64,000 bases of DNA from Flavobacterium sp. xlx-214 (lineage in GTDB: Bacteria > Bacteroidota > Bacteroidia > Flavobacteriales > Flavobacteriaceae), in contig NZ_CP059431.1 in assembly GCF_013874595.1 (NCBI RefSeq), forward strand, positions 2,046,001 to 2,110,000. The letters are read 5' to 3'. Position numbers and translations under genes: made by a program. Shown here one piece after another: positions 12,240 through 56,187 of this stretch; position 1 is the first letter of the stretch, and every line of letters starts with the position of its first letter. The notes below the pieces were generated by a model. It saw only the letters and a list, made by a program, of their open reading frames with translations. It was not told the origin of the DNA and made no database searches.

Positions 12240-12288
12240 TTTTGCTAATACAAATCTAGTATTTGTTTTAACAATTGTTTTTTTTATG

Positions 12289-12296
12289 TATTTTTG
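12289..12296 (+). promoter_or_regulatory. -7 box for the chromosomal response regulator
   Basis: TATTTTTG matches TAnnTTTG and overlaps the first in-frame ATG (12286), which argues that translation begins instead at 12361. An upstream TTTG at 12262-12265 could be the -33 box, though the 23-bp spacer is slightly long. Confidence 0.45.
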
Positions 12297-12360
12297 TTTA
12301 TCAGTTCTGTTCAAATGCAAAATACCTGAACTGAAAATAAAACAAAACAACAAAAAACCT

Positions 12361-39965: not shown

Positions 39966-41242
39966 TTGCTAAAATAGGTAAAAGTGGAAATCTTTATGGG
40001 GCATTAGCGTATAATAATATTAAAGTTGCAAACGAAAATGGAAAAATATTGATGGTAAGCAAAATGATGGAAACAAGGAATGGTAAGTATACTGTAGCGC
40101 AATTGGCTCGATCTTTTGAGCCTTATCTCGTGGCAAATCGAAATACTGAAAAACATACGTTGCATATTTCTCTTAATCCTGATCCTAAAGACAAGGTAAG
40201 TGATGAAAATTTTTGCGAATTGGCAGAGCGGTATATGCAACAAATGGGCTATGGTGAACAGCCTTATGTTGTCTTTAAACATACAGATATTGACCGTACG
40301 CACATACATATTGTATCAGTTTGTGTGGATGAATTGGGTAAAAAGATTTCGGATAAATTTGAGAAAATACGGTCCATGAAAATCTGTCGTGAATTGGAAA
40401 AGCAATATGGATTGATACCTGCAACTGATAAGGAACGCGCAGAGAGCAATATGATTTTTCACCCGGTGAATTATAAGGCTGGTAACGTAAAAAAACAAAT
40501 CGCTTCTGTAATACAAACGTTACCCAATCATTATAAATTTCAAACTTTGGGCGAATACAATGCTTTGTTATCGTTATTTAATATTACCTGCGAAAAAATA
40601 GAAAGCGAATTGCCTGAAACTTCACTACGTGGTTTAATCTACTTTTCTTTAAATGAAAAATCGGAGAAAGTTGGAAATCCGTTCAAAGCTTCTCTTTTTG
40701 GCAAAAACAAGGGGATTATTGATTTAGAAACGCATTTTAATAAAAGTAAGTTGGGTGTGAAAGACCATCTTAGTAAGCAAACCTTAAAAGCGATAATAGA
40801 TGATGTTTTAAAAACAACAAACGATGAGATTGGCTTTAAAAAGCATTTAATTCAGCAAGGAATCAATGTGGTGGTGCGTAGAAATGATGCTGATAGATTG
40901 TATGGTATTACTTTCATAGACCATAATACCAAAATGGTATGGAATGGTTCTAGGCTAGGTAAAGAATATGCTGCGAATGTTTTTAATGATTTATGGAATT
41001 GTAATACACAACGTGTACATGCTGTATCAAATAATACGTCTTCATTAGTAAGATTTTCAAATGATATAGAGGATGTTCTTTTGGAGAAAGCACATGCATT
41101 GTTTGATTTTTTGAATAGTGATATTAAGGAATACAATACTATCGAAACACTAGGAGGACTGCTACCTGAAACACTGGGCGAAGATTATGAAGAATTGGAT
41201 TTTGCTCAGAAGATGAAAAAGAGGAAATACAAAAAGAGATAG
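39962..41242 (+). CDS. mobB: Relaxase MobB
   Basis: 426 residues. The N-terminal relaxase domain (MobP-like) has the early region MIAKIGKSGNLYGALAYN, where Tyr12 or Tyr16 could be catalytic, and the metal-binding histidines in FKHTDIDRTHIHIVSV, with HTLHISLNP before. It nicks one DNA strand at oriT and stays bound during transfer. The C-terminal part is helical and basic. It is coupled to mobA. Between mobB and mobC two unrelated minus-strand genes are inserted. Confidence 0.9.
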   Translation: MIAKIGKSGNLYGALAYNNIKVANENGKILMVSKMMETRNGKYTVAQLARSFEPYLVANRNTEKHTLHISLNPDPKDKVSDENFCELAERYMQQMGYGEQPYVVFKHTDIDRTHIHIVSVCVDELGKKISDKFEKIRSMKICRELEKQYGLIPATDKERAESNMIFHPVNYKAGNVKKQIASVIQTLPNHYKFQTLGEYNALLSLFNITCEKIESELPETSLRGLIYFSLNEKSEKVGNPFKASLFGKNKGIIDLETHFNKSKLGVKDHLSKQTLKAIIDDVLKTTNDEIGFKKHLIQQGINVVVRRNDADRLYGITFIDHNTKMVWNGSRLGKEYAANVFNDLWNCNTQRVHAVSNNTSSLVRFSNDIEDVLLEKAHALFDFLNSDIKEYNTIETLGGLLPETLGEDYEELDFAQKMKKRKYKKR

Positions 41243-42223: not shown

Positions 42224-44215
42224 ATGCAAGGAGAAGACGATTTAAGAGGACTTGCCAAGATTATGGCTTTTATGCGGGCAGTTAGTATTCTATTACTACT
42301 GATGCATCTGTATTGGTTTTGCTATGTTTTTTTTATGGAACGTGGTTGGGTATTGGAAATTCTTAATAAAATACTAAGCAATTTTCAACGAACTGCTGGT
42401 TTGTTTTCGCATGTACTGTATACCAAAGTTTTTGCTTTGGTTTTGTTGGCTTTGAGTTGTTTGGGAACGAAAGGTGTAAAGAATGAGAAAATCACCTGGC
42501 GTAAAATATATGGGGTGTTGATTACGGGATTTTTATTGTTTTTTTTAAATACACCGTTGCTAAAGCTTTCTTCTGTAGTTGGTCATTTTCTGTACATCAT
42601 AACACTTTCTTTAGGATACATTGCTTTGCTTATGGCAGGGTTATGGATGAGTCGTTTGCTTCGTACAAATTTAATGCATGATGTTTTCAATAATGAAAAT
42701 GAAAGCTTTCTGCAAGAAACCAAATTAAAGGAAAATGAATACTCTGTTAACCTTCCTACTAAATTTTACTATAAAGGCAAGTGGAATAATGGTTGGATTA
42801 ATATTGTAAATCCTTTTAGAGCAACGATAGTACTCGGAACACCCGGTTCTGGCAAATCATATGCTGTTGTAAATAACCTTATTAAACAACAGATTGAGAA
42901 AGGCTTTTCTATGTATTTATATGATTTTAAATTTGATGATCTTTCTACAATTGCTTACAATCACTTATTAAAACATCAAGATAAATATACGGTTGCTCCT
43001 AAATTTTATGTAATCAATTTTGATAATCCACGTAAGAGCCACCGCTGCAATCCACTAAATCCAAGTTTTATGACGGATATCTCTGATGCCTATGAAGCTG
43101 CATACACCATTATGCTGAATTTGAACAGATCATGGATACAGAAACAAGGTGATTTCTTTGTGGAAAGCCCAATTATTTTATTGGCAGCCATTATTTGGTA
43201 TCTGAAAATCTATGATAACGGCAAGTATTGCACTTTTCCACATGCTATTGAATTGTTGAATAAAAAATATGAAGATGTTTTTACTATTTTGACTTCTTAC
43301 ACTGAATTGGAAAATTATCTTTCTCCTTTTATGGATGCTTGGAAGGGTGGTGCACAAGATCAATTGCAAGGTCAAATAGCGTCTGCTAAAATTCCTTTGT
43401 CTCGAATGATTTCGCCTCAATTGTATTGGGTAATGACGGGTAATGATTTTTCTTTAGATATTAATAATCCTAAAGAGCCTAAGATTTTATGTATGGGAAA
43501 TAATCCTGATAGGCAAAATATTTATTCAGCAGCTTTAGGATTGTATAATTCAAGAATTGTCAAACTAATTAATAAGAAAGGGCAGCTTAAAAGTTCGGTT
43601 ATCATAGATGAATTACCTACCATTTATTTTCGAGGATTAGATAATTTAATTGCAACAGCAAGAAGTAATAAAGTAGCTGTTTGCTTAGGCTTCCAAGATT
43701 TTTCTCAATTAACAAGGGATTATGGTGATAAAGAAAGTAAAGTAATACAAAACACAGTAGGTAATATTTTTAGCGGACAAGTAGTAGGTGAAACTGCTAA
43801 AAGTTTATCAGAACGTTTTGGGAAAGTCCTGCAAAAACGCCAGAGTTTGTCTATTAATAGAAATGATACGTCAACATCAATTTCTACTCAGTTGGATAGC
43901 TTGATACCAGCTTCCAAAATTTCAACGCTTACTCAAGGTATGTTCGTTGGTGCTGTTTCTGATAATTTTAATGAACGCATTGAACAAAAGATTTTCCATG
44001 CGGAAATTGTAGTTGATAATGAGAAAGTAAGTGCTGAGACTAGTCGATATAATATAATTCCAGAAATACGTTCTTTTAAAGATGAACAGGGTAATGATAG
44101 GATGAAGAAGGAAATAGAGATGAACTATACTATGATAAAGTCAGATATTCTACATATAGTTGAAAATGAGTTGGAACGTATCAAGAACGATCCTGATTTA
44201 CAACATTTGATTTAA
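42224..44215 (+). CDS. mobC: Type IV coupling protein MobC (TraG/VirD4 family)
   Basis: 663 residues. Four membrane helices fill the first 150 residues. The ATPase domain begins VLGTPGSGKSYAVVNNLI (Walker A near 206-213), with Walker B SVIIDELPTIY (about 460) and ATARSNKVAVCLGFQDFSQL. It links the relaxosome to the mating pore and pumps DNA. The C-terminal IEMNYTMIKSDILHIVENEL is typical of the Bacteroidota MobC. It is the last conserved transfer gene before the peptide system. Confidence 0.92.
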   Translation: MQGEDDLRGLAKIMAFMRAVSILLLLMHLYWFCYVFFMERGWVLEILNKILSNFQRTAGLFSHVLYTKVFALVLLALSCLGTKGVKNEKITWRKIYGVLITGFLLFFLNTPLLKLSSVVGHFLYIITLSLGYIALLMAGLWMSRLLRTNLMHDVFNNENESFLQETKLKENEYSVNLPTKFYYKGKWNNGWINIVNPFRATIVLGTPGSGKSYAVVNNLIKQQIEKGFSMYLYDFKFDDLSTIAYNHLLKHQDKYTVAPKFYVINFDNPRKSHRCNPLNPSFMTDISDAYEAAYTIMLNLNRSWIQKQGDFFVESPIILLAAIIWYLKIYDNGKYCTFPHAIELLNKKYEDVFTILTSYTELENYLSPFMDAWKGGAQDQLQGQIASAKIPLSRMISPQLYWVMTGNDFSLDINNPKEPKILCMGNNPDRQNIYSAALGLYNSRIVKLINKKGQLKSSVIIDELPTIYFRGLDNLIATARSNKVAVCLGFQDFSQLTRDYGDKESKVIQNTVGNIFSGQVVGETAKSLSERFGKVLQKRQSLSINRNDTSTSISTQLDSLIPASKISTLTQGMFVGAVSDNFNERIEQKIFHAEIVVDNEKVSAETSRYNIIPEIRSFKDEQGNDRMKKEIEMNYTMIKSDILHIVENELERIKNDPDLQHLI

Positions 44216-44340: not shown

Positions 44341-44967
44341 ATGAATATATTATTGCTTGATGATCATGAATTGATTGTAGAAGGTTATATTGCTATATTA
44401 GATGATACTTCTAATAACTTTACTAAATTGTATTCTTGTAAACAATTATACCATACTTTGCTAGAAGGATTTAAGCCAGATATTGCTATTCTTGACTATA
44501 ATGTACCATCTTACCCTGAACAGAATATGTACTCAGGAGCGGATTGCGCTGTTTTTATAAAAGAATATGTACCAAGATGCAAAATTATATTGATTACGGC
44601 ACAAGAAGAAGCTACCGTTCTTTATAAAATTTATAAAAAAACAAATGCTGATGCACTTATTACTAAGTCTGATTTTAAATCTGAAGATTTAAGGAATATT
44701 GTAAACGAAATTATTCCAACTCCTTATTTAAGCACTAGAGTACTTAATGCTTTGAATGAAATTAGAGGTAAAAACTCTTTACTAAGCGTAACAAATATGG
44801 AAATATTAATGTATTTAGCACAAGGTTTTAAGGTTAACCAAATTAGTGATTTTGTTGAATTAAGTACACCTGCTATTCAAAAGAGGGTTAATAAAATGTT
44901 ACAAGAATTTGAAGTTGCTGACTCGCAAAAATTAGTGTTGTTTTGTAAACAACAGAACTTACTTTAA
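44341..44967 (+). CDS. LuxR-type response regulator 1 (ICE)
   Basis: 208 residues. Receiver: DDH at 7-9, phospho-acceptor D52 in AILDYNVPS, Thr in IILITAQ and Lys in ITKSDF. The C-terminal GerE-like helix-turn-helix has EILMYLAQGFKVNQISDFVELSTPAIQKRVNKML. Same length and layout as the regulator at 51867, with which it clearly shares a recent ancestor. It lies at the start of the peptide locus under copy A of the 26-bp element, so it may bind this element itself. The HisKA_3-type kinase at 54190 is the natural partner. Confidence 0.85.
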   Translation: MNILLLDDHELIVEGYIAILDDTSNNFTKLYSCKQLYHTLLEGFKPDIAILDYNVPSYPEQNMYSGADCAVFIKEYVPRCKIILITAQEEATVLYKIYKKTNADALITKSDFKSEDLRNIVNEIIPTPYLSTRVLNALNEIRGKNSLLSVTNMEILMYLAQGFKVNQISDFVELSTPAIQKRVNKMLQEFEVADSQKLVLFCKQQNLL

Positions 44968-44976
44968 ATGGTTTTT

Positions 44977-45002
44977 TTAACATTTGGTATTTATGTAGAA
45001 CC
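44977..45002 (+). promoter_or_regulatory. Degenerate copy of the 26-bp element
   Basis: It starts TTAACATTT, exactly like copy D, and ends ACC at the same distance, but the central GGGTAG/GCTAC blocks are mutated. It lies before the peptide gene. Confidence 0.25.
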
Positions 45003-45051
45003 TGAAATTATAATTTTGATATGAAAATTTTTACCTGAATTAATTTTAGCA

Positions 45052-45059
45052 TACGTTTG
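45052..45059 (+). promoter_or_regulatory. -7 box of the peptide gene
   Basis: TACGTTTG matches TAnnTTTG, 97 bp before the ATG at 45157. A second match, TAATTTTG, is at 45011-45018. Confidence 0.45.
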
Positions 45060-45156
45060 AAATGAAAACTTTAAAATATTGAAAGATTCAAGTGCACATG
45101 ATTCAAGTACATAGCAAGTTTTCAAATAATAATTGTTTAATGAAATTTTTTTAATT

Positions 45157-45399
45157 ATGAAAGAATCATTTATGAATTTAGAAGGTATTAAATCTCTATC
45201 TAACCAAGAACAAAAAAATATATTTGGTGGAACTGATAGGGTATGGACTTTAACTTGCAAAGATGGAACTCAGTTTTGCTTAAACCCTAATGGAGTGTCA
45301 CAACAAACTATGGTTAATATGTGTAGTAATTATGGGGGATATTTAAAACAATCTATGGAGCCTGTTGCAAATTCAGTTGGTTTAATGCCAAATCCTTAA
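45157..45399 (+). CDS. Double-glycine-leader peptide precursor (bacteriocin or signal)
   Basis: 80 residues from ATG 45157 (ATG 45172 is also possible). The leader MNLEGIKSLSNQEQKNIFGG has the E/L/L pattern and final Gly-Gly (24-25) cut by C39 peptidases. The predicted product is 55 residues with Cys34, Cys41 and Cys56 and the glycine-rich piece CSNYGGYLKQ. An odd number of cysteines leaves one free or used for a dimer. The mature part begins near TDRVWTLTCKDG. The gene is followed by its own terminator and then by oxidation and export genes. The arrangement resembles the bacteroidetocins of Bacteroidales, but the core sequence is not one I recognise. It could be a toxin or a pheromone. Confidence 0.75.
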   Translation: MKESFMNLEGIKSLSNQEQKNIFGGTDRVWTLTCKDGTQFCLNPNGVSQQTMVNMCSNYGGYLKQSMEPVANSVGLMPNP

Positions 45400-45406
45400 T
45401 TTTTTT

Positions 45407-45437
45407 GAGAACTCTGTCAAGCAGGGTTCTCGTTTTT
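45407..45437 (+). terminator. Terminator between peptide gene and export genes
   Basis: GAGAACTCTG and CAGGGTTCTC form a 10-bp stem with one wobble pair and a 5-base loop, followed by five T after one G. It would let the precursor be made in excess over the exporter. Confidence 0.7.
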
Positions 45438-45460
45438 ACAAAATGTTTTTTATCTATTAA

Positions 45461-46732
45461 ATGAAAACAATAAAAAAAATTGTTCAAGTATTTTTCTTTT
45501 TTTATTTCCTTTTTAATTATACATATTCACATAGCCAAATAATTGATCCAGTAAATTGGAATTGCGAAGTAAAAGTAATTGACAAAAAAAATGTTAAACT
45601 TATTTTCAATGTTGAATTAGAAGAAGGATGGCACTTGTATACAACAAAAAGTGAAATAGGTGGAGGTGAACCATTAAAATTATCATTTGAAAATTTAGAG
45701 AACAACTATAAGTTAAATGGTGATATTGTTGAATTGAACACCCAAAGTGAATTTAGTGATATTTTTGAGGTCACTGAAATTTTTTTTTCCACAAATGGAA
45801 CCATTGAACAGTCCGTTATACTAGAAAATGATAATTTAGAAACTATACAAGTAGCAATAAATTATCAAGTATGCAAAGATGCTTGTATTCAAGATTTAAA
45901 ATTATTTGAATTTAATCTTAAAAATAGATCTGTAAAAATAGTATCCCAATTCTCACAAGATAAAGCAAAAATAAAAAAAGTAGAAGAAAACATCAATAGC
46001 AAACCTAGACGTTTTTTTTTGTTAGAATTGGTATTCATTGTTTTATTATTAATAACCTATTCTTTTAATTGCTTTTCAGATAAAAGGAATATTTTTAAAC
46101 TATTTGTATTTGTAGCCATAAATGCATTGGTGATTTTTTTGAATTTTAAGTTGCAAGTTTCATTAGTTTTCGTTATAATTACAATAATTATAGTAACCTT
46201 TATTTTAATATTTCATATTATACTTTTGATAAAATATAATAAAAAAGTTTTGGATAAAGGTGATGCTTTTTTTATTGGTGGAATAGTCATAATAATGACT
46301 GTTTCTAATTCAATTTATGAAACAGGTAGATTTGGATGGTTAGAGTCTTTTTATTATTTTGTACCATTGGTATTTTCTACTATTTTAGGAAAATTTTTGT
46401 CTAGTAAAAAATATATTTTAGATAAAAGAACTCAGGTAATTATAACTGTTTTTTTATACATAGTATTATTACTTTATATTTTGAAATTATTGAATATTTT
46501 CATGCCAAATATGAGTTTAGACAACAAGCAGATTATCAATTCGTTATTAATAGTTTCTCTTTTATTTGCTGTTTCAATTGTACTTAATTTCGTAAAATTA
46601 GTTAATACTGATGAAAATAGAGTTAGAGTAAGTGAACTATTCTTAGCTCTTATTTTACTAATATTTGCAATATATTTGTTACCAAGCTTATGGGGAGCAC
46701 CTGTTACTAAATTTAATTTTTTATTGAACTAA
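45461..46732 (+). CDS. DsbD N-terminal-domain membrane protein
   Basis: 423 residues. After a signal peptide, residues 30-155 resemble the DsbD alpha domain, with GWHLYTTKSEIGGGEPLKL and the redox pair C138-x3-C142 in YQVCKDACIQD. Eight membrane helices follow in about 185-415, but they lack the usual cysteines of the DsbD channel. It therefore could pass thiol reduction or oxidation between membrane and periplasm only through the outside domain. The context between a cysteine peptide and a VKOR/thioredoxin protein fits a disulfide-handling role. Confidence 0.65.
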   Translation: MKTIKKIVQVFFFFYFLFNYTYSHSQIIDPVNWNCEVKVIDKKNVKLIFNVELEEGWHLYTTKSEIGGGEPLKLSFENLENNYKLNGDIVELNTQSEFSDIFEVTEIFFSTNGTIEQSVILENDNLETIQVAINYQVCKDACIQDLKLFEFNLKNRSVKIVSQFSQDKAKIKKVEENINSKPRRFFLLELVFIVLLLITYSFNCFSDKRNIFKLFVFVAINALVIFLNFKLQVSLVFVIITIIIVTFILIFHIILLIKYNKKVLDKGDAFFIGGIVIIMTVSNSIYETGRFGWLESFYYFVPLVFSTILGKFLSSKKYILDKRTQVIITVFLYIVLLLYILKLLNIFMPNMSLDNKQIINSLLIVSLLFAVSIVLNFVKLVNTDENRVRVSELFLALILLIFAIYLLPSLWGAPVTKFNFLLN

Positions 46733-46758
46733 GAAAGTAAATAAAAATTATTAAATTA

Positions 46759-48330
46759 ATGTTAATGGAGAACCTTGTAATTAAATACTTACAAAACAAT
46801 AATTATCATCAGAATGTTATTAATAACTTCAAAGAAAATTATTTTTCTCATCCAAACTATCCAAGTTTATTCTCAGTTACTGACAGTTTAGGATTTTTAG
46901 GTATTGAAAATTTTGCAGTTTCTGTACCAAAAGAACATTTTAGAAAACTGCCTGAAATATTTATAGCTTCTGTTCTTTTAGATAATAAAACAGAGTTTGT
47001 TTTGATTAAAAAAAAGGAAAAAGACATCTCATATGAAAATCAAAATGGACAAATATTAAACATATCTTTTGATGAGTTTAAGATTTTTTGGGACGGAGTT
47101 ATTTTGGTTATTGAAGAGAATGAAACAAAAGAAAATTCTGATTCTTCATTTAGAAGAAATAAAATGATTCGCTTTATAATTCCTTTGATTTTATTATTCT
47201 TTGTGGGATTTTTGAATCTGATAGATACACAAATGCTTTTTTTGAATTACATAACATTTTTGTTACTTTCAATGATAGGGCTTATGTTATCATTTTTTAT
47301 AATTCAAGAATCTTTGGGAGAAGTAAATCCTTTTGTTTCTAAAATCTGTAATAGTTCAAATAAAAATATAGCTTGTGATTTTGTTGTAAAATCAAAAGAA
47401 AGTAAGTTTTTTTTCGCGATCAATTTTTCTGATTTACCAATTGTTTTCTTTCTTTCAAATTTGTTACTGATTTCTTTAAAACCATCTTTTTTTATACAGA
47501 TAGGTTTTTCCTCTCTTCTGTCTGTGCCTGTAATTATATATTCTATTTATTTGCAGAAATTCAAAGTAAGAAAATGGTGTGTTTTATGCTTAGGAGTATC
47601 CGTTATTTTATTATTACAAGCAATGTTTTTTCTTATTTCATACAAACAAATAACTTGGAATATTTATAATTACTCGCAGTATTTTATAATTACTATTATA
47701 ATTTGGTTGATATGGAAAGCAGTTGAAAAAGCTCTTGTCAATAAAAATAAAATGGTTTCAAAAAACACAATATTATCCCGATTCAAACGAAAATTCGAGG
47801 TATTTGAATTTCTATTAAATAATAATTCCGTTAGTGAAGACATTCAAACATTGAATGGAATTATTATAAACAAGCAACTAAACCCGATTAAGCTAAGATT
47901 ATTTCTAAGTCCGAGTTGCGGACATTGTTACACAATTTATAAAGAAGGAATAAAACTTGCAAAAAAATACCCTGAAAAAATTACTATAGAGATATTGTTC
48001 AATGTAAATATCCAAAATACAGAAAATCCTTTTATCTCTGTCGTTGAAAGTTTACATGAAATATTCATATCTAAAAAAGAAGACATTTTAAATACTCTTG
48101 ACGATTGGTATCTTAAAGAAATGACATTAGAAAATTGGCTTAGAAAATGGAAACAAACACAAATTTCAACAACAACAAGAACAGAATTAGAAAAGCAACA
48201 TCTATTTTGTGTTGAAAATGATTTAAGATATACTCCTATAATTATTTTAGGAAAAAATATGTATCCAGATGATTTTGTGTTGGAAGAACTAAAATATTTT
48301 ATTTCAGATTTGGAAGAAAAAAATGGCTAA
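46759..48330 (+). CDS. Degenerate C39 / VKOR / thioredoxin fusion protein
   Basis: 523 residues in three parts. Residues 1-120 look like a peptidase C39 fold (HPNYPSLFSVTDSLGFLGIEN, then FDEFKIFWDGVILVI) without the DCG catalytic cysteine, so they may bind the leader but not cut it. Residues 135-330 form a VKOR-type four- or five-helix membrane domain, with Cys197/Cys206 in the loop and active site C274-VL-C277. Residues 375-520 are a thioredoxin domain with C387-GH-C390. Such fusions make disulfides outside the membrane. The stop overlaps the exporter start (ATGGCTAA). Confidence 0.8.
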   Translation: MLMENLVIKYLQNNNYHQNVINNFKENYFSHPNYPSLFSVTDSLGFLGIENFAVSVPKEHFRKLPEIFIASVLLDNKTEFVLIKKKEKDISYENQNGQILNISFDEFKIFWDGVILVIEENETKENSDSSFRRNKMIRFIIPLILLFFVGFLNLIDTQMLFLNYITFLLLSMIGLMLSFFIIQESLGEVNPFVSKICNSSNKNIACDFVVKSKESKFFFAINFSDLPIVFFLSNLLLISLKPSFFIQIGFSSLLSVPVIIYSIYLQKFKVRKWCVLCLGVSVILLLQAMFFLISYKQITWNIYNYSQYFIITIIIWLIWKAVEKALVNKNKMVSKNTILSRFKRKFEVFEFLLNNNSVSEDIQTLNGIIINKQLNPIKLRLFLSPSCGHCYTIYKEGIKLAKKYPEKITIEILFNVNIQNTENPFISVVESLHEIFISKKEDILNTLDDWYLKEMTLENWLRKWKQTQISTTTRTELEKQHLFCVENDLRYTPIIILGKNMYPDDFVLEELKYFISDLEEKNG

Positions 48331-50533
48331 AAAGTTTCCTCATTATAAGCAAGCGGACGTTAAAGACTGTGGACCGACTTGTCTTAAAATAATAACTAAA
48401 CATTATAATAAAAGTTTAAATATTCAAACCTTGCGAGAATTATCAGAGACTACTCGTGAAGGGAGTAATCTTTTGACTTTAAGTGAAGCGGCAGAAAAAA
48501 TAGGCTTCCGTACATTAGGTGTTAAGCTATCTTTAGAAAAACTTCTAGAGGCTCCTTTTCCTTGCATTCTCCATTGGAACAAAAATCATTATGTGGTTTT
48601 ATATAAAATTAAAAGCCGAAAATCGAAAATTGAAAAGCTTTATATTTCTGATCCTGCTTTTGGTTTATTGGAGTATACACAAGAAGAATTTTTAAAATTT
48701 TGGATAGGTAATAATGCAGATGAAAATACAGAAGAAGGTATCGCTCTATTGTTAGAACCAACACCAGTATTTTACAAACAAGATTCTTACAATGAAGAAA
48801 AGAAAGAATATAGTATAATTTATCTATCCAAATATTTAATACGTTATAAATCTTTTATTGCACAATTGGTTATTGGTTTGTTGGCTGGAAGTATTTTGCA
48901 GTTAATCTTTCCGTTTCTAACCCAGAGCATTGTAGATGTGGGTATTCAGAACCAAAATATTCACTTTATTTGGTTAGTGCTTATCGCACAGCTTTTTTTA
49001 TTTTTTGGAAAAACAGCTTTAGAGTTTTTTAGGAGCTGGATTATGTTACATCTTTCGACACGAATTAACATCTCATTAATTTCAGATTTCTTTATTAAAT
49101 TGATGAACCTTCCTATTTCATTTTTCGATGTGCGAATGACAGGGGATATTATGCAACGAATTAATGACCATAGCCGGATAGAAAGGATCTTGACTACTTC
49201 TTCGTTGAATGTTTTATTTTCGTTTGTGAATATGCTCATCATGGGAGGAATTCTAGCATATTATAATTTGCAAATATTTACTGTTTTTTTTATAGGAAGC
49301 TTCCTATATTTTGGTTGGATACTGATTTTTCTTAAGCGCAGGGAAACATTGGATTATAAGCGATTCTCTGAAATAAGTCAGGAACAAAGCAAAGTAATGG
49401 AGCTGATCAACGGAATGCAGGAAATTAAGCTTCATAATGCAGAAAAACAAAAACGCTGGGGTTGGGAATATGTACAGGCACGATTGTTTAAAGTTTCTAT
49501 GCAAGGATTGGTTTTGGAGCAAACCCAAAGTATAGGTTCTAATTTCATAAATGAATTAAAAAATATACTCATTGTTTTTCTATCAGCAAAACTAGTTATA
49601 GATGGTGAAATTACCTTAGGGATGATGATGGCAATATCATCTATTGTAGGAAACCTGAACGGTCCAATAATTCAATTGATTGAATTTGTAAGAGAATTAC
49701 AAGATGCTAAAATATCGTTAGCTCGCTTGGGAGAGATTCACGACAAAGAAGATGAAGTACAAAACGAAGATGAAACAATTAAAGACATTCCTAAAAAAGC
49801 AAACATTACTCTTAAAAATATATCTTTTCGATACACTGGTTCTGATCAAATTGTATTAAAAGACTTGAATTTAACCATTCCTGCTAACAAAATTACAGCA
49901 ATAGTAGGTACTAGTGGTAGTGGAAAAACCACTCTTATGAAAATGCTCTTAAAATTTTACGAACCGATTGAAGGAATTGTTAATTATGACCAATTAGACT
50001 TAAAAAATATCTCGCAAAAAACTTGGAGGGCTCATATTGGTTCAGTAATGCAAGAAGGCTACATATTTAACGATACTCTGGCAAATAATATTGCTATTGG
50101 TGTTGATATAATTGATAAAGAACGATTACGATATGCTTCAGATGTAGCTAATATAAAAGATTATGTAGACAGTCTGCCTTTAGGCTTTAATACAAAAATT
50201 GGAATGGAGGGAATAGGAATGAGTACTGGGCAAAAGCAACGTCTTTTAATTGCAAGAGCAGTTTATAAAAACCCTGAAATGTTATTTTTTGACGAGGCAA
50301 CTAGTGCTTTAGATGCCAATAACGAAAAAGAAATTATGGAAAAACTAAATGTTTTTTATAAAAACAAAACGGTTGTGGTAATTGCACATAGGTTAAGTAC
50401 TGTAATGAATGCAGACCAAATTGTTGTTTTAGATAAAGGAAAAATAATAGAACAGGGAACACATATGGAATTAGTAGCTTTAAAAGGGAATTATTACGAA
50501 TTGGTTAAAAATCAACTACAATTGGGAAATTAA
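48323..50533 (+). CDS. Peptidase-containing ABC exporter (PCAT)
   Basis: 736 residues. The C39 peptidase has Q10 and catalytic C16 in KQADVKDCGPTCLKI, His in HWNKNHYVVLY and Asp in ISDPAFG. The membrane domain covers about 165-440. The nucleotide domain has Walker A VGTSGSGKTTLMK (near 528), signature MSTGQKQRLLIARA (near 632), Walker B EMLFFDEATSALD and H-loop IAHRLST. It should cut the leader after Gly-Gly and pump the peptide out, with an HlyD-type adaptor. It is translationally coupled on both sides. Confidence 0.92.
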   Translation: MAKKFPHYKQADVKDCGPTCLKIITKHYNKSLNIQTLRELSETTREGSNLLTLSEAAEKIGFRTLGVKLSLEKLLEAPFPCILHWNKNHYVVLYKIKSRKSKIEKLYISDPAFGLLEYTQEEFLKFWIGNNADENTEEGIALLLEPTPVFYKQDSYNEEKKEYSIIYLSKYLIRYKSFIAQLVIGLLAGSILQLIFPFLTQSIVDVGIQNQNIHFIWLVLIAQLFLFFGKTALEFFRSWIMLHLSTRINISLISDFFIKLMNLPISFFDVRMTGDIMQRINDHSRIERILTTSSLNVLFSFVNMLIMGGILAYYNLQIFTVFFIGSFLYFGWILIFLKRRETLDYKRFSEISQEQSKVMELINGMQEIKLHNAEKQKRWGWEYVQARLFKVSMQGLVLEQTQSIGSNFINELKNILIVFLSAKLVIDGEITLGMMMAISSIVGNLNGPIIQLIEFVRELQDAKISLARLGEIHDKEDEVQNEDETIKDIPKKANITLKNISFRYTGSDQIVLKDLNLTIPANKITAIVGTSGSGKTTLMKMLLKFYEPIEGIVNYDQLDLKNISQKTWRAHIGSVMQEGYIFNDTLANNIAIGVDIIDKERLRYASDVANIKDYVDSLPLGFNTKIGMEGIGMSTGQKQRLLIARAVYKNPEMLFFDEATSALDANNEKEIMEKLNVFYKNKTVVVIAHRLSTVMNADQIVVLDKGKIIEQGTHMELVALKGNYYELVKNQLQLGN

Positions 50534-50534
50534 T

Positions 50535-51846
50535 ATGTCAGACGAAAGAGAAATAGAGCTAAGAAGCGAAGAAGTACAAGATATATTAACCCGTGTCCCT
50601 CATTGGATGATTCGTTGGGGAAATGTCATCATTCTTATTATAATATTGTTTATTTTATTTTTTTCTTGGTTCATTAAATATCCCGATATTGTTAGTACTC
50701 AAGTAACAATAACAACACAAATTCCTCCTGAAAAATTGGTAGCAAAAAGTTCAGGAAGAATTGAAAAGATATTTATTAAAGATAGAGATTCGGTTGCTAA
50801 TAATACTCCTTTAGCTGTAATAGAGAATCCTGCCAGTTATAAAGATGTATTTTTTTTAAAGGAACTTATTGATAGTATTAATACAACTAATGAAACCTTT
50901 GTTTTTTCTATAGATGAGTTACCACCTTTAAATCTCGGTTCTATTGAAAGTGCTTATAGTGTTTTTGAAAAAGATTATATGGCTTATAGATTAAATAAGG
51001 ATTTGGATCCTTATCAAATTGATATAAATGCTAACAATGTTGAAAGCTCTCATCAAAATGAAAGGTTAGTTTTATTAGTAGAGCAAAAGGAAATAGGACA
51101 AAAAGAATTACTATTAAAAAAACAAGAACTTGACAGAAATAAAAAGCTTTATGATAAGGGAGTGATTTCAACACAAGAATGGGAGCTAAAAAATATTGAA
51201 TATTTACAACAAGAAAAGAATATAAATAGTCTGAACTCTCAAATTTCACAGTTGCGCTCTTCGTCAAATGATTTAAATCGGAACAAAAGAAGTAATTTAG
51301 TCAATAAATCTAAAGATGATGTTAGTTTGTTGCGAAATGTAATACTTTCCTTTAATCAACTAAAAAAAGCAATAACAGAATGGGAACTGGCTTATGTACT
51401 TCGCTCTTCTATTTCTGGGCAAGTATCTTTTATGCAGATTTGGACTGAAAATCAAACTATAAATGCAGGTGAAAATGCTTTTGTAATATTACCTAAAATC
51501 CAATCTGATTTTTTAGGTAAAATTAAAGCTCCTATTTTAAACTCTGGAAAAATTAAAGTGGGGCAAGCCAGTTAACATCCGCTTAATAAATTATCCAGAT
51601 CGTGAATTTGGACTTTTAAAAGGAAAAATTAAATCTATTTCGCTGACACCTGATAAGGAAAATAATTTACTAATAGATGTTATTTTACCTGAAGGATTGC
51701 AAACATCCTACAAAAAACAAATTGTATTTCAACAAGAAATGTCAGGTACAGCAGATATTATTACTGAGGATTTAAGATTAATAGAGCGTTTGTTATATCA
51801 ATTTAGAGATCTATTTAGTAGACAAACCGATAGTAAAAGATTATAA
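50535..51846 (+). pseudogene. HlyD family adaptor, frameshifted
   Basis: The first frame gives 346 residues: a cytosolic start, one membrane span (VIILIIILFILFFSWFI), a lipoyl-like region (VAKSSGRIEKIFIKDRDSV), and a coiled coil. It stops right after GKIKVGQAS. Removing one G at about 51567 restores PVNIRLINYPDREFGLLKGKI and continues to a stop at 51846, giving the full adaptor of about 436 residues. The rest of the gene is well preserved, so the shift is young, a sequencing error, or phase-like variation. Without the repair the exporter would lack its C-terminal adaptor domain. The start is 2 bp after the exporter stop. Confidence 0.85.
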
Positions 51847-51866
51847 ATTTAGCTATCAAAATGTTT

Positions 51867-52493
51867 TTACAATAGATTATCCTTTTTCAAGATTTGTATT
51901 AGCTCATGATAGTCATTTACATTAAAGTCTTGAAGCATTTTAGTTATTTTCTTCTGAATTCCACTTTGGCTTAAATTAATGAATTGAGACAACTGACTTG
52001 ATTTGAAACCTTGTGACAAGTACAAAAGTATTTCTCTGCTATTACTATCTAGTAGCGTATTTTTTCTAGTTATTTTTGTAAAGGCTTCTTTTACTTTTGG
52101 TGAATAATAAGGTGCTTTTGTAGCAGTATTCAGTAATTCATTAATTAGTTCTTGATTAAAGTCTATTTTTGAAATAATAGCATACGGATTTACTTTCTTA
52201 TTCATTTCATAAAGAAAAACAGCTTCATCATGAGCAGTAACTAAAATAATCTTACAATTAGGTTGTGCTTGTTGAAGTAAAAGAGCACAATCAGAACCAT
52301 TAAACAAACTTGCAGCATTGTACGGTGGCAAATTATAATCTATTAAAGCAATGTCTACAAGAGTATCAGTAAATAACCAGTTGTAGAACTCTTCACAGTT
52401 TGAAACTTTATAAAAACTGTTCATTTCTGGCTGAAGATACAAAGCATACCCATCAAGTGTCATTAAATGATCGTCAAGTAGTAATATATTCAT
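51867..52493 (-). CDS. LuxR-type response regulator 2 (ICE)
   Basis: 208 residues, a close paralogue of the regulator at 44341. It shows DDH at 7-9, D52 in ALIDYNLPP, the Thr of ILVTAH and the Lys of IISKID, then EILLYLSQGFKSSQLSQFINLSQSGIQKKITKMLQDF as helix-turn-helix. It reads toward the HlyD gene and away from the LytTR gene. Copy B of the 26-bp element is 54 bp before its start. Two such regulators with one kinase in the same locus suggest a branched output. Confidence 0.85.
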   Translation of the reverse strand: MNILLLDDHLMTLDGYALYLQPEMNSFYKVSNCEEFYNWLFTDTLVDIALIDYNLPPYNAASLFNGSDCALLLQQAQPNCKIILVTAHDEAVFLYEMNKKVNPYAIISKIDFNQELINELLNTATKAPYYSPKVKEAFTKITRKNTLLDSNSREILLYLSQGFKSSQLSQFINLSQSGIQKKITKMLQDFNVNDYHELIQILKKDNLL

Positions 52494-52546
52494 ACTAGTT
52501 TAAGCAAAAGATAATTTATTCTGCAACTAATTTAGCGAAAAATAAT

Positions 52547-52572
52547 TTAACAAAGTGGGTACCTACGCTACA
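52547..52572 (+). promoter_or_regulatory. 26-bp regulatory element, copy B
   Basis: TTAAC, AAAGT, GGGTAC, CTAC, GCTACA in the divergent promoter region of response regulator 2 and the LytTR gene. GTTAA at 52574-52578 is a mirrored outer half. The core dyad is weaker than in the other copies. Confidence 0.6.
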
Positions 52573-52594
52573 CGGTTAATATTTTTAAAGTATA

Positions 52595-52602
52595 TAATTT
52601 TG
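52595..52602 (+). promoter_or_regulatory. -7 box of the LytTR gene
   Basis: TAATTTTG matches TAnnTTTG. The centre of element B lies about 44 bp before the predicted start of transcription, a suitable position for activation. Confidence 0.5.
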
Positions 52603-52621
52603 ATGAGTCTATATTTTAGGG

Positions 52622-53338
52622 GTGCAATATTCTTTTGTTGTTATTGGAAATCAAGAAGTTGAAGGGCTGAGGTTAGAGGAGATTTCTTCTTTTTATCCTC
52701 AATATCGTTATTATGGTACTTTTCCAAATGAAAAGAAAACAATTGAGAGTATTTTAAAATTGAAGCCTCACTTGGTTTTTTTTAATGTGGCTTCAGAATA
52801 TGCTGATAATGCCATAACATTTACTGTTTTAAGTGAAATGTTGCAATATTTGAAATGTGTCCCTTATTTTATCGCATTACACAATAGTCCAATTTATTCT
52901 TTAGAAGCAATCCAAAGCGGGTTCTCAGATTACTTAGTCTGTACTGACATACATTCTTTGAGTTTATCGTTGGCGAAGTTTGAAAAAAGAATGCCAATTC
53001 CAATTCAGCAGAGTTTATGCATTAGATCTTATAGTGATTACCAGATTTTAAAGTTTAATGATATCGTTTATTTAAAAGCAGATAATAACAGTACAGACTT
53101 TAAAATGATTAATGGTAAAACGATAACTGCATACAAAACATTGAAATACTACGAAGAAACACTTCCTGTTAATTTTGTCCGAATACACAAAAGCTATATT
53201 GTAAATATTCATTACGTTTCGAGGATCGTTTTTAGTAAATCAAAATGTTTTTTAAATTTTAATGAACAACTTCCCTTTTCGAACTCTTATCGAGTAATAG
53301 TTGAAAATATTCTTGTTCAGAATGGAATCGAACTATAG
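52622..53338 (+). CDS. LytTR DNA-binding protein with inactive receiver
   Basis: 238 residues from a GTG start. Residues 1-120 fold like a receiver but lack the acidic pair at the start (VVIGNQEV) and carry Asn in place of the phospho-Asp (LVFFNVAS). Residues 135-238 are a LytTR domain with FNDIVYLKADNNSTDFKMING, TLKYYEETLPVNFVRIHKSYIVNIHYV and the closing LPFSNSYRVIVENIL. Such regulators often control peptide production. Loss of phosphorylation sites suggests that expression level, not phosphorylation, sets its activity. The -7 box at 52595 supports this start. Confidence 0.82.
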   Translation: MQYSFVVIGNQEVEGLRLEEISSFYPQYRYYGTFPNEKKTIESILKLKPHLVFFNVASEYADNAITFTVLSEMLQYLKCVPYFIALHNSPIYSLEAIQSGFSDYLVCTDIHSLSLSLAKFEKRMPIPIQQSLCIRSYSDYQILKFNDIVYLKADNNSTDFKMINGKTITAYKTLKYYEETLPVNFVRIHKSYIVNIHYVSRIVFSKSKCFLNFNEQLPFSNSYRVIVENILVQNGIEL

Positions 53339-53680
53339 ATAAGATTAGTGATATTCAAATATGAAATTTCTCCATTTTTACAAAATTCTACCAATATTCG
53401 AATTTGAGATTTTAAAAATACGGCTTTTCACCATGTAAATTATTCTTAATCCTAACAGACTAAGGTTGTCCACATGATATACCTTTAAAATCACTGTTAA
53501 GTAGTTGTTTTTCAATTTCTTTGTTAAACACAAAAGGTAGTAATTCAAAGTAGTTATTACTAAAAAAAATAAGAAGTTCAAGAAAGAACATTTTTTGTTG
53601 TGTATGAATCATGCATGGTTCAAACTTGCTTGTAGAAACTGCAGATATACAGGCTTTTCCAACATTTAATTTATTTAAAA
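53339..53680. other. Gap between the LytTR gene and the Gly/Thr lipoprotein
   Basis: 342 bp without a supported gene. It contains the near-palindrome GAATCATGCATGGTTC at 53606-53621. A leftward frame spanning most of the gap also covers the start of the lipoprotein and shows no family feature. Confidence 0.35.
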
Positions 53681-54076
53681 ATGAAAAAGCAATTTTTTGT
53701 AATGGCATTATTATGCCTATCTGCAACATTTGTTTCATGTTCTAACGACGATGAAACTAAATATGAAATCGAAAAACAAGAGGAATTTCAAATAAAGCAA
53801 TTACAAGCTCAGAAAGATACACCTCAAACAAAGTCTACATCTTCTACAAATAGTGATGATCCTGAATCAGGAGGAGAAAATCCAAATGAAGACGAAAATA
53901 ATCCAGAAAGCGGAATTGATCCTGGAAGTGGTACAAATCCGGGGACGGGAGTGGGTATTACTCCAGGAACTGGAACTGGAACAACACCAAATACAGGAAT
54001 AGGTACAACACCAGGTACTGGTAATGGAGATGATGATGATGTTCATATAAAACCTACTAAACCGATAAAACCTTAA
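53681..54076 (+). CDS. Lipoprotein with Gly/Thr/Pro repeats
   Basis: 131 residues. The lipobox LSATFVSC (Cys20) is followed by a charged helix (EIEKQEEFQIKQLQAQKD). Then comes a low-complexity tail with about seven imperfect repeats of the type PGTG-GT (for example TNPGTGVGITPGTGTGTT), an Asp run and basic KPTKPIKP. It is surface-exposed or periplasmic and probably disordered. Its place between the LytTR and kinase genes suggests a link to the peptide (immunity, anchor or sensor), without direct proof. Confidence 0.6.
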   Translation: MKKQFFVMALLCLSATFVSCSNDDETKYEIEKQEEFQIKQLQAQKDTPQTKSTSSTNSDDPESGGENPNEDENNPESGIDPGSGTNPGTGVGITPGTGTGTTPNTGIGTTPGTGNGDDDDVHIKPTKPIKP

Positions 54077-54080
54077 GTTA

Positions 54081-54113
54081 AAAAGAAACCTTAAAAAAAA
54101 GGTTTCTTTTTTT
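54081..54113 (+). terminator. Terminator after the lipoprotein gene
   Basis: AAAGAAACC/GGTTTCTTT with an A-rich loop and a T-run. Confidence 0.8.
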
Positions 54114-54189
54114 ATGTTTTAAGATATAGTTCGTTAATTTGTTTCGCAAGGGATTGTTATTTTTAGATACCGTTAAAATTTTTTTTTAA

Positions 54190-56187
54190 ATGAAATTTTT
54201 ATTTTTTTTAATATTATTAGGTTCTCTGTTAATTGGATGTAGCAAAAAATCTGATCAAAATAGTTTAAAAGGTTTCTGGGATAGTTTCGAAATGGCAACT
54301 GATAAGGATAAATGGTTAGATCATTATTATTCAAATTTACAAGAAAATGTAAATAAGAAAGACTATACTACAGAGCTTTTAAATGTTGCATTAGCATATA
54401 AAGAGCTTGGTAATGTTCAAAAAAATTACAATATACTTCACAAGGTCAATAAATTAGCTAAAAAACAAGGAAATCTAAGCCAATTAGGACTTGTTAATAG
54501 GTATTTAGGTGATTATTTTGAATCAATTGAAGTATTAGATAGTTCTTTTTATTATTATACCAAGGCCGAGAAATATTATAGTGATATTGAGTCTGAGCGA
54601 GTTGAATTTGCTAGAGTAATTTTATATAAAGCAGATGTTTTGTATGATATGGGCATTACAACAGAAAGTGAGGTGGAAACAGTAAGAGCATTGTCTATTT
54701 TATCACAAAATAAGGATCATAGATTGACATATGAAGCTACTGTAAAAATGACTTTAATTCTTAAAGAACTAAATGGCTTTGCTAGTGCAAAAAAATATTA
54801 TGATAAAATTCCAGAACTTTTAAGTATTCTTGAACAAGAGGGATATGATAAAGAAAATATTGATAGGGACTGGTTATCTTATTACAATAACATTGGTGGG
54901 TATTATGATAAAATGGAAGATTTTGAAAAAGCACAATCTTATTATAAGTTAGCTTTACAAAAGCCATATGTTGAAAACCATGCAAAGCTTCATGCAATGA
55001 TTCTAAATAACTATGCAAATAGTTTGATTAATAGTAATGTAGATGATTTAAAAATTGATTCTTTATTAAAGAAATCGCTACTAATTAGAGAAGAACTAAA
55101 TCATCAACAAGGAATAATTGCCAGTAGGGTACGTATGTCGGAATATTATTTAAAGAAAAAAGATACCGTACAATCGTTAAGAAATATGAAGCAGGCATAT
55201 AAATTAGCTGTTGAAACAAATAGTAATTCAGATGTATTGAGGATTTTGAAATTTTTAGCAGAAAATGAAAAAGAAGAGAAAAATTATTATTTAAATAAAT
55301 ACGTTATAGTAAAGGATAGTTTGTATGAAGTAGAAAAGTCAACTCGAAACAAATTTGCTCGAATTGCTTATGAAACAGACGAAATTGAAAAAGAAAATAC
55401 TATTTTGATTAAACGAACACTTTATTATGGGGTAAGTGCTATTATCTTTTTGTTACTTATACTTATATTATTTATTATCTACCGTTTAAAACTTCGAAAT
55501 AGAAAGTTAGAGTATCAAAAGAAAGAGCAAGATAATGTACAAAGAATTCAAGAATTACTTTTTGAACAACAGATTGCCTCAGAGCATGCTAAAAATGAAG
55601 AAAGAGCTAGAATAGCAAGAGATTTACACGATTCTGTTGTAAACCGAATTTTCACAACGCGTCTTAATCTTGAAAAAATAGCTACAGAAGATATTGAATC
55701 CAAAAGTAAAGTAATAAATGAACTACTAAAAAGCGAGCAACAAATTAGAGATATATCTCACGATATACATGATAATCTATTTCATCAAAAACAAAGTTTT
55801 TCCTCTGTTTTAGAAGAATTGGTACTTTCTCAATCCAATAGTTTTAACACCGTTTTTAAATGTTCGGTTGATGCTCAGATTGATTGGTCTGTGTTAACAA
55901 TTCAGCAAAAAACACAACTATTTTTAATTTTACAAGAATTGTTACAAAATGTAAATAAGCATTCTAAGGCTTCAAATTGTTTTGTTTTTTTTATTAAAAA
56001 TGAAGAAGGCATCCTTTTGAAAGTTCATGATGATGGAGTTGGTTTCAATTTTAATGTAAAGCCTAATGGTTTAGGTTTAAAAAGCATTCAAATAAGAACA
56101 AAAAAATTGGAAGGTATTTTTGAAATAAAGAGATTAAATAATGTGACTATATCAATTTTACAGATTCCATTTAAAATAATTAATTAA
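54190..56187 (+). CDS. TPR-containing sensor histidine kinase
   Basis: 665 residues. A lipoprotein-like signal (FLILLGSLLIGCSKK) leads to a periplasmic TPR array (about 55-360, for example YNNIGGYYDKMEDFEKAQSYYKLAL). A membrane span (about 412-435) is followed by a HisKA_3 dimer domain with phospho-acceptor H480 in RDLHDSVVNRIF. The HATPase has LLQNVNKHSKAS, HDDGVGFNF and NGLGLKSI. This class pairs with LuxR-type regulators; two are encoded in this locus and one on the chromosome beside ssrA. The TPR part could sense a peptide or a protein partner. Confidence 0.9.
   Translation: MKFLFFLILLGSLLIGCSKKSDQNSLKGFWDSFEMATDKDKWLDHYYSNLQENVNKKDYTTELLNVALAYKELGNVQKNYNILHKVNKLAKKQGNLSQLGLVNRYLGDYFESIEVLDSSFYYYTKAEKYYSDIESERVEFARVILYKADVLYDMGITTESEVETVRALSILSQNKDHRLTYEATVKMTLILKELNGFASAKKYYDKIPELLSILEQEGYDKENIDRDWLSYYNNIGGYYDKMEDFEKAQSYYKLALQKPYVENHAKLHAMILNNYANSLINSNVDDLKIDSLLKKSLLIREELNHQQGIIASRVRMSEYYLKKKDTVQSLRNMKQAYKLAVETNSNSDVLRILKFLAENEKEEKNYYLNKYVIVKDSLYEVEKSTRNKFARIAYETDEIEKENTILIKRTLYYGVSAIIFLLLILILFIIYRLKLRNRKLEYQKKEQDNVQRIQELLFEQQIASEHAKNEERARIARDLHDSVVNRIFTTRLNLEKIATEDIESKSKVINELLKSEQQIRDISHDIHDNLFHQKQSFSSVLEELVLSQSNSFNTVFKCSVDAQIDWSVLTIQQKTQLFLILQELLQNVNKHSKASNCFVFFIKNEEGILLKVHDDGVGFNFNVKPNGLGLKSIQIRTKKLEGIFEIKRLNNVTISILQIPFKIIN

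What the first reader, a model, noticed from the sequence alone, without database searches (positions are those of the whole stretch)
44341..56187. ICE-borne peptide production, oxidation, export and sensing locus
Seen: a double-glycine precursor with three core cysteines, a DsbD-like protein with CxxxC, a C39-like/VKOR/thioredoxin fusion, a C39 ABC exporter with intact catalytic residues, an HlyD adaptor, two LuxR-type regulators, a LytTR regulator and a TPR kinase, all within 12 kb and between two transfer-type genes. Known: C39 exporters cut Gly-Gly leaders, and VKOR/thioredoxin proteins form disulfides. Inference: a mobile bacteriocin or pheromone system, possibly coupled to ICE behaviour. 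The peptide core is not one I recognise.
Basis: partly seen in the sequence, partly recalled or inferred. Interest (0 to 1): 0.85.

Follow-up and report, generated by a model that had tools for sequence, protein, structure and literature searches.

The report
Inside-out disulfide enzyme for exported peptides
A mobile DNA element in a Flavobacterium-type bacterium carries genes that likely make and export a small cysteine-containing peptide, using a three-part enzyme predicted to form the peptide's disulfide bond on the inner side of the membrane; one gene of the export machine is broken in this copy.

Summary
The genes are there, with one correction: the HlyD adaptor frame is broken near 51.57 kb, though open in 34 of 34 relatives. 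The precursor is a real double-glycine precursor: a leader profile built without it scores E 1.8e-9; the next of 551 window ORFs 2.4. No relative of its 55-residue core was found. The locus is an ICE-borne copy of a cluster common in Flavobacterium; it was in none of 20 sister-ICE stretches, 8 of which span the whole hotspot. Relatives' cores almost always have an even cysteine number (312 of 315); this one has three. The surprise is the VKOR fusion: a C39 fold without catalytic residues, an extra membrane helix, a VKOR core and a DsbA-like domain. Charge bias over 72 homologues, against other VKORs of the phylum, predicts that all three domains face the cytoplasm. I propose leader-docked oxidation inside the cell, then export. 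RR2, LytTR, lipoprotein and TPR kinase belong to a separate cassette that recurs in the genus; coupling to ICE transfer is unsupported.

The parts
13644..15221 (-). large serine recombinase of the ICE, overlapping the 3' end of the tmRNA gene 13297-13692
   Evidence: Pfam Resolvase/Recombinase; tmRNA
39962..41242 (+). MobA/VirD2-type relaxase of the ICE
   Evidence: Pfam Relaxase 1.1e-28
42224..44215 (+). TraG/VirD4-type coupling protein, left edge of the cargo hotspot
   Evidence: Pfam YWFCY, T4SS-DNA_transf
44341..44967 (+). RR1, NarL/LuxR-type response regulator
   Evidence: Response_reg 6.4e-9, GerE just under cut-off; 3 paralogues in own genome
45157..45399 (+). peptide precursor: leader 1-25 ending IFGG, 55-residue core with 3 Cys
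   Evidence: leader profile E 1.8e-9; no homologue of the core found
45406..45432 (+). terminator-like hairpin right after the precursor
45461..46732 (+). DsbD-derived protein: nDsbD domain with C138/C142, degenerate membrane part without the two transmembrane Cys, no thioredoxin domain
   Evidence: Pfam DsbD_N 1.5e-7; the 22 other hits are DsbDs of 635-723 aa
46759..48330 (+). fusion: C39 fold without catalytic residues (1-123), extra TM helix (129-157), VKOR core (160-295), TM5, DsbA/ScsC-like domain (354-522)
   Evidence: Pfam VKOR 4.5e-12; AlphaFold pLDDT 89.4, pTM 0.62; fold matches; charge bias
48323..50533 (+). C39 peptidase ABC exporter
   Evidence: Pfam C39 1.6e-32, ABC_membrane, ABC_tran; the only PF03412 match in the genome
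50535..51575 (+). HlyD-type adaptor, first 346 residues; frame broken
   Evidence: Pfam HlyD_3 1.1e-5
51574..51846 (+). C-terminal part of the HlyD adaptor in another frame
   Evidence: matches the C-terminal part of intact HlyDs in relatives, searched as a separate piece
51867..52493 (-). RR2, response regulator; part of the separate regulatory cassette
52622..53338 (+). LytTR regulator with a degenerate receiver-like domain; regulatory cassette
   Evidence: LytTR 9.3e-16; match at E 1e-30 in 37 of 160 genus genomes, own included
53681..54076 (+). lipoprotein with Gly/Pro/Thr-rich tail; regulatory cassette
   Evidence: N-terminal part 61% identical in L148; a small lipoprotein at the same place in 20 of 34 loci by a pattern
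54080..54111 (+). terminator-like hairpin right after the lipoprotein
54190..56187 (+). TPR sensor histidine kinase; regulatory cassette
   Evidence: HisKA_3 1.0e-6; 92% identical copy elsewhere in the genome
56819..62284 (-). helicase/methylase-like ICE gene, right edge of the cargo hotspot
   Evidence: directly after TraG in 4 of 20 sister loci

Best explanation
This is an ICE-borne copy of a peptide cluster that is widespread in Flavobacterium, in which a double-glycine precursor is likely docked by its leader on a C39-like domain that lacks catalytic residues, predicted to be oxidised on the cytoplasmic side by an inverted VKOR-DsbA fusion, and would then be cut after Gly25 and exported by the C39 ABC transporter. 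Shown by sequence or comparison: the leader, the three-Cys core without known relatives, the three-domain fusion with all VKOR and thioredoxin cysteines, the loss of the C39 catalytic residues in the fusion and their presence in the exporter, the charge bias of the fusion's loops, and the broken HlyD frame. Inferred: leader docking, cytoplasmic oxidation with electrons passed to quinone, cleavage and export. The product is most likely a competition peptide (bacteriocin-like), because cores vary far more than leaders. In this strain the broken HlyD may block secretion. The regulators RR2-LytTR-lipoprotein-TPR kinase are a separate cassette that may have been recruited to control the cluster.
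Against: Topology rests on charge bias and helix counts, not on an experiment. The N-linker and the TM1-TM2 loop are also rich in acids (net -0.53 and +0.62), so the clear net charges are in the TM3-TM4 turn and after TM5. Cys-containing exported peptides are usually oxidised outside. There is no sign that the C39-like domain binds a leader. The profile match of that domain to C39 has only 46% HHalign probability and Pfam C39 is not called on the window's protein (it is on 15 of the 120 homologues listed). The window's core has three Cys, against the rule of even numbers. HlyD is broken. The DsbD-derived protein was in none of the related loci (only a full-length DsbD in L092; 0 of 77). 85 of 315 cores have no Cys, so oxidation cannot be the only purpose of these clusters, if all those hits are real precursors.
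Confidence: 0.5

Rival explanations
1. Canonical arrangement: the VKOR and DsbA-like domains face the periplasm, and the peptide is oxidised after or during export; the C39-like domain would then be periplasmic or the first TM helix not a true span.
For: Usual place of disulfide formation; bacteroidetocin clusters carry a thiol oxidoreductase next to the C39 exporter (PMC6671954, passages; the side of the membrane is not given there); one C39-type protein (L314) scored only one TM helix before the core.
Against: K/R bias in the TM3-TM4 turn is the reverse of that in phylum VKORs without the C39-like domain; a 123-residue N-terminal domain without a signal peptide would have to cross the membrane.
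Confidence: 0.22
2. Decaying relic: an imported peptide cluster that no longer works in this host, with a broken adaptor, an odd-Cys core and a degenerate DsbD piece.
For: HlyD frame broken, intact in 34 of 34 relatives; no second HlyD of this kind found in the genome; odd Cys number rare (3 of 315; 9 of 133); DsbD piece lacks the membrane Cys pair and thioredoxin domain.
Against: The other frames of the cluster are open, catalytic residues of exporter, VKOR and thioredoxin are kept, the precursor has an intact leader; the break could be a sequencing error.
Confidence: 0.3
3. Peptide pheromone that controls transfer of the ICE through the neighbouring regulators.
For: Regulators adjoin the cluster; RR1/RR2-like genes near 4 of 20 exporter-chosen genus loci.
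Against: RR1/RR2-like genes in 0 of 20 family loci and 1 of 77 named loci; the system is in none of 20 sister ICE stretches, 8 of them complete; relatives lie apart from ICE genes (0 of 40, 0 of 77); the regulatory cassette lives apart in most loci and its LytTR and kinase are near none of 77 named peptide loci.
Confidence: 0.07
4. The RR2-LytTR-lipoprotein-TPR kinase cassette has nothing to do with the peptide and is just neighbouring cargo.
For: No peptide-maturation gene found near 26 of 33 cassette loci; in L148 the cassette sits beside a recombinase and, by eye, mobilisation-type genes, in L149 a version without LytTR lies beside VirB4- and Tra-type genes; 0 of 77 named peptide loci have its LytTR or kinase.
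Against: 7 of 33 cassettes adjoin lanthipeptide, radical-SAM, C39, HlyD or VKOR genes against 0 of 20 arbitrarily placed stretches (p 0.028, or 4 of 33, p 0.14, with queries from the window only); L178 (same place as L102) shows a VKOR peptide cluster together with LytTR and kinase.
Confidence: 0.45

Closest known systems
Bacteroidetocins (Bacteroidales class II peptide toxins, PMC6671954; passages seen)
   Same: GG leader, C39 ABC exporter and a thiol oxidoreductase encoded together in Bacteroidota; Cys-containing core
   Different: There a 15-residue leader, 42-residue cores and four Cys in the two founding members; here 25, 55 and three, an HlyD adaptor and a three-domain VKOR fusion; direct sequence comparison was not run
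VKOR-thioredoxin fusions (e.g. cyanobacterial VKOR, recalled)
   Same: VKOR core with two Cys pairs followed by a thioredoxin-fold domain
   Different: Extra C39-like domain and extra TM helix in front; charge of the TM3-TM4 turn reversed relative to phylum VKORs without the C39-like domain
Inverted archaeal VKOR (Aeropyrum, recalled; not seen in any call)
   Same: Predicted cytoplasmic active site
   Different: Here bacterial, fused to C39-like and DsbA-like domains and tied to peptide exporters
C39-like domain of HlyB (non-peptidase role recalled)
   Different: Here it sits on the oxidase, not on the transporter
Peptidase-containing ABC exporters (PCAT1, ComA) and double-glycine protease domains (LahT)
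   Same: Exporter has the C39, membrane and ATPase domains and the catalytic motifs
   Different: No difference in the exporter was looked for beyond domains and motifs; the peptide is unrelated to known substrates as far as searched

Membership tests
Double-glycine leader peptides | leader ending in GG with the family pattern, plus a C39 exporter | tested here: met
   leader profile E 1.8e-9; C39 exporter
Double-glycine leader peptides | secreted, leader-free peptide | not testable with these tools
   needs mass spectrometry
Class II bacteriocin | kills or inhibits related bacteria | not testable with these tools
   no assay; no NCBIfam hit for the precursor at E 0.01; of 10 relatives scanned, one passes a bacteriocin-signal cut-off and several resemble bacteriocin-type leader models below cut-off
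Bacteroidetocin | leader of about 15 and mature peptide of about 42 residues | tested here: not met
   25 and 55 residues against the description in PMC6671954 (passages)
Bacteroidetocin | at least two Cys; C39 ABC transporter and, in most regions, a thiol oxidoreductase beside the precursor | tested here: met
   three Cys; fusion and exporter adjoin
Bacteroidetocin | sequence similarity to known members and the companion multi-TM protein | not tested
   bacteroidetocin sequences were not fetched
VKOR family | VKOR domain above the curated cut-off and four catalytic Cys | tested here: met
   46.7 bits against 27.5; C197, C206, C274, C277 invariant in 72 sequences
Inverted VKOR | active site on the cytoplasmic side | tested here: inconclusive
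   charge bias and helix count agree; no experiment
C39 peptidase (N-terminal domain of the fusion) | catalytic Cys and His | tested here: not met
   domain aligns from beyond the Cys position, Glu-Phe where the exporter has His-Tyr; no Cys before residue 197
C39 peptidase (exporter) | catalytic Cys, His, Asp motifs | tested here: met
   motifs at residues 10, 88, 109; Pfam 112.5 bits
DsbD (window 45461-46732) | two Cys in the membrane domain and a C-terminal thioredoxin domain | tested here: not met
   alignment with 18 DsbDs
DsbD (window 45461-46732) | N-terminal DsbD domain with its Cys pair | tested here: met
   Pfam 1.5e-7, C138/C142 invariant
Integrative conjugative element | recombinase, relaxase, coupling protein, mating-pore ATPase | tested here: met
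   first three by Pfam; the ATPase (33583-36084) was read by eye and is 77% identical to one in L149
Integrative conjugative element | direct repeats at the ends | tested here: inconclusive
   no exact repeat of the tmRNA end longer than 9 bases found at the right side

The most novel reading that the evidence does not exclude
Flavobacteria carry an inside-out disulfide machine: an inverted VKOR-DsbA enzyme whose non-catalytic C39 domain holds the double-glycine leader, so that disulfides are put into bacteriocin precursors in the reducing cytoplasm, selectively and before export.
Probability: 0.42. Interest if true: 0.8.

Novelty: new variant of a known kind. Interest (0 to 1): 0.6.

Why it matters
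Disulfide bonds are normally made outside the cytoplasm. A leader-guided, membrane-bound oxidase working inside the cell would be a new way to fold exported peptides, would fit the almost always even Cys numbers of the cores, and could become a tool for making disulfide-rich peptides. The family is common in Flavobacterium (424 of 582 stretches of one capped scan encode a relative), so it can be tested in laboratory strains. The loci also give several hundred candidate bacteriocin precursors (133 ORFs, 338), and the window shows that a mobile element can pick such a cluster up.

Tried and rejected
Coupling to ICE transfer: 20 sister stretches (8 complete hotspots), 40 and 77 related loci, no support. 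A relative of the peptide core: protein search (shared-word method), 133 and 315 neighbouring cores, fold of the precursor from its sequence alone (pLDDT 68.9, no PDB match below E 0.001): none. Shared operators: a dyad lies about 62-67 bases before both the precursor and the lipoprotein start, and a 14-base near-repeat before RR1 and between RR2 and LytTR. Overlapping 12-mers with one mismatch exceed simple shuffles (7 against a mean of 1.1, maximum 4 of 40), but exact 9-mers do not (0 against 0.35) and 14-mers only reach the shuffle maximum (13); the dyad is not seen by eye before the lipoprotein in other cassettes. Left as a lead. ICE end repeats: not found. Defence-system models: no hit for precursor, DsbD-like, fusion, LytTR, lipoprotein or kinase at E 0.001; the exporter hits the ABC-type model mad3 (5.8e-32), taken as ATPase likeness, and RR1 has two weak hits. 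First scan of genome contigs with the single protein found nothing; the alignment did. Literature: ten searches (titles and starts of abstracts seen) listed no description that I recognised of a C39-VKOR-DsbA fusion or an inverted bacterial VKOR in peptide clusters; only open-licence papers are held, so this is weak. Passages only were read of PMC6671954, PMC5524665, PMC10352776, PMC12715929, PMC5306230 and PMC3526497; the last two did not bear on inverted VKOR.

Rows dropped before counts: in the phylum VKOR control 9 of 30 loci did not parse with my motif, among them two long proteins that may be of C39 type; L310 is the window's own protein. TPR-kinase loci without a LytTR match (L146, L147, L149, L152, L155, L157, L160, L166-L168) were left out of the 33. 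The LanC, LanB, radical-SAM and one C39 query came from cassette loci themselves, which inflates 7 of 33. The numeric K/R maximum after TM4 overlaps between the two VKOR groups (L300 6; L306 4), so only the turn before the CxxC separates them. Relatives were mostly best hits, not random draws; 4 loci are in both the 40 and the 77.
Full report
What is there. The window is 64 kb of a 3.0 Mb single-contig genome. An ICE starts with a large serine recombinase that overlaps the 3' end of the tmRNA gene and carries transfer-type genes (read by eye), a relaxase and a TraG/VirD4-type coupling protein. The 12-kb block at 44341-56187 lies between the coupling protein and a large helicase/methylase-like gene. 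In 20 sister loci found with the coupling protein, these two genes are direct neighbours in 4 (L118, L121, L126, L128), lie 4 to 14 kb apart in 4 (L117, L123, L125, L131), and in 12 the second gene was not within the fetched stretch of 5.5 to 19 kb. So this is a cargo hotspot. None of the 20 stretches shows the peptide system; one (L119) has a C39 exporter at 45% identity.

The precursor. A profile of neighbours' leaders (87 leaders, duplicates removed, window precursor not included) finds the window precursor at E 1.8e-9; the next of 551 window ORFs is at 2.4. The leader is 25 residues long, as in 53 of those 87. No relative of the 55-residue core was found in a shared-word search of 5.8 billion proteins or among 133 and 315 neighbouring cores. 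That is normal for these loci: leaders are 41% identical on average, cores 15% (600 random pairs). What is not normal is the cysteine number. Of 133 cores in 40 loci 124 have an even number, of 315 distinct cores in 77 named loci 312 (85 with none). The window's core has three.

The cluster elsewhere. The VKOR fusion matches in 42 of 299 family genomes, own included. Of 20 loci chosen from the best exporter matches 18 also have the fusion; in the 40 loci, 34 have an exporter, 32 of these the fusion, always on the same strand. Leader ORFs are in 35 of 40 and 76 of 77 loci; four loci are in both sets, so 113 are distinct. ICE genes of the types in the window are in 0 of 40 and 0 of 77. The nearest relative (L092; fusion 62%, exporter 84%, HlyD 75% identical) lies, by eye, among chromosomal housekeeping genes, with a 99-residue precursor and a thioredoxin-type lipoprotein (Pfam) in the place of the DsbD-like gene. 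A match to that lipoprotein is in 8 of 40 loci.

The broken parts. HlyD stops after 346 residues; the rest is in another frame. In 34 of 34 relatives with both parts the frame is single. Searches of the genome found no second HlyD of this kind and no second C39 domain, so nothing obvious replaces it. Whether the break is real or a sequencing error cannot be told here. The DsbD-like protein keeps the N-terminal domain with C138/C142 but lacks the membrane Cys pair and the thioredoxin domain of the 18 aligned DsbDs; the 22 other hits are all DsbDs of 635-723 residues. It cannot pass electrons across the membrane in the DsbD way (inference).

Which side of the membrane. The fusion has one more helix (129-157) before the VKOR core than a canonical VKOR (recalled layout). 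With a soluble N-terminal domain and no signal peptide, six helices put both ends on the cytoplasmic side. The positive-inside rule agrees: K+R per 10 residues are 1.71, 1.25, 3.22 and 2.63 in the N-linker, TM1-TM2 loop, TM3-TM4 turn and post-TM5 segment, and 0.33, 0.15 and 0.38 in the other three loops; acids offset the first two, so the turn (net +3.1) and the post-TM5 segment (net +4.2) carry the argument. As a control I searched the phylum for VKORs: 26 of 118 genomes have one. Of 30 fetched loci 21 parsed. The 10 of C39 type (window included) have 2-4 K/R before the CxxC; of the 11 others 10 have 0 or 1 and one short protein (L298) has 2. Grouped by helix number, 10 of 10 with two or more helices before the core against 1 of 11 with one have at least 2 K/R (Fisher 3.4e-5); the sequences are related, so the p-value is only a guide. 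Around TM5 four VKOR-thioredoxin proteins without the C39-like domain (L300, L302, L316, L317) look reversed by eye, but the simple K/R maximum there overlaps between the groups.

How it likely works. Leader docked on the C39 domain without catalytic residues, core oxidised in the cytoplasm by the DsbA-like domain, electrons through VKOR to quinone, then hand-over to the exporter, cleavage after Gly25 and export through the ABC/HlyD channel. Only the anatomy is shown; each step is inferred. Bacteroidetocins are the tested precedent for GG peptides with a thiol oxidoreductase in Bacteroidota; there the authors infer that this enzyme makes the disulfides, and the peptides migrate differently when reduced (PMC6671954, passages).

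The regulators. RR2, LytTR, a lipoprotein and the TPR kinase recur together across the genus: a LytTR match at E 1e-30 is in 37 of 160 genomes, own included. A small lipoprotein between LytTR and kinase was found by a pattern in 20 of 34 loci, and by BLAST in L148 as well. In 33 loci with LytTR, 7 adjoin LanC/LanB, radical-SAM, C39, HlyD or VKOR genes; 0 of 20 arbitrarily placed stretches do (p 0.028, or 4 of 33 and p 0.14 with only the window's own genes as queries). L178 (the same place as L102) holds a VKOR peptide cluster and the LytTR and kinase together. Against this, none of 77 named peptide loci has that LytTR or kinase within 5 kb, and only one has an RR1/RR2-like gene. A 92% identical copy of the kinase lies at 2400451 and a 50% one at 2392628 of the same genome, so the kinase may also act elsewhere.

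Verdict. A real peptide cluster, ICE-borne but not ICE-specific, possibly disabled at HlyD in this copy. Its enzyme looks like an inverted VKOR dedicated to leader-bearing peptides, of which I saw no description in the listings of ten paper searches. That is the interesting part and it is testable.

Noticed in passing
window 51867-56187; L148, L150, L151, L153, L154, L156, L158, L159, L161-L165, L169-L188: Recurrent cassette RR - LytTR with degenerate receiver-like domain - small lipoprotein - TPR histidine kinase; the lipoproteins found elsewhere have 56-87 residues, often with a charged or Pro-rich tail. Not every part was found in every locus.
   Followed up: partly
G000:C1:2400451-2402445 and 2392628-2394589: Second copies of the TPR kinase, 92% and 50% identical, outside the window.
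   Followed up: partly
L150, L154, L159: Lanthipeptide-type clusters beside the cassette: LanC-like genes (Pfam in L150 and L159, 83% identical in L154), GG-type small ORFs, and in L154 a large gene taken by eye for LanB.
   Followed up: no
window 12286-13008: A further RR1-like regulator just outside the ICE, next to the tmRNA gene.
   Followed up: no
window 45085-45115 and 53602-53622: Dyad-like sequences about 62-67 bases before the precursor and the lipoprotein start codons, sharing CATGRTTCAAR.
   Followed up: partly
77 named loci: 85 of 315 leader-positive distinct cores contain no cysteine although a VKOR fusion is next door.
   Followed up: no
L298: A short VKOR (161 aa) with two helices before the core and K/R in the turn, possibly a stand-alone inverted VKOR.
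   Followed up: no
L101 4299-4448, L103 18739-18879, L104 285-425: Small Cys-free GG peptides of another leader type at the edge of the peptide loci; in L101 and L103 genes that look like TPR proteins by eye lie near them.
   Followed up: no
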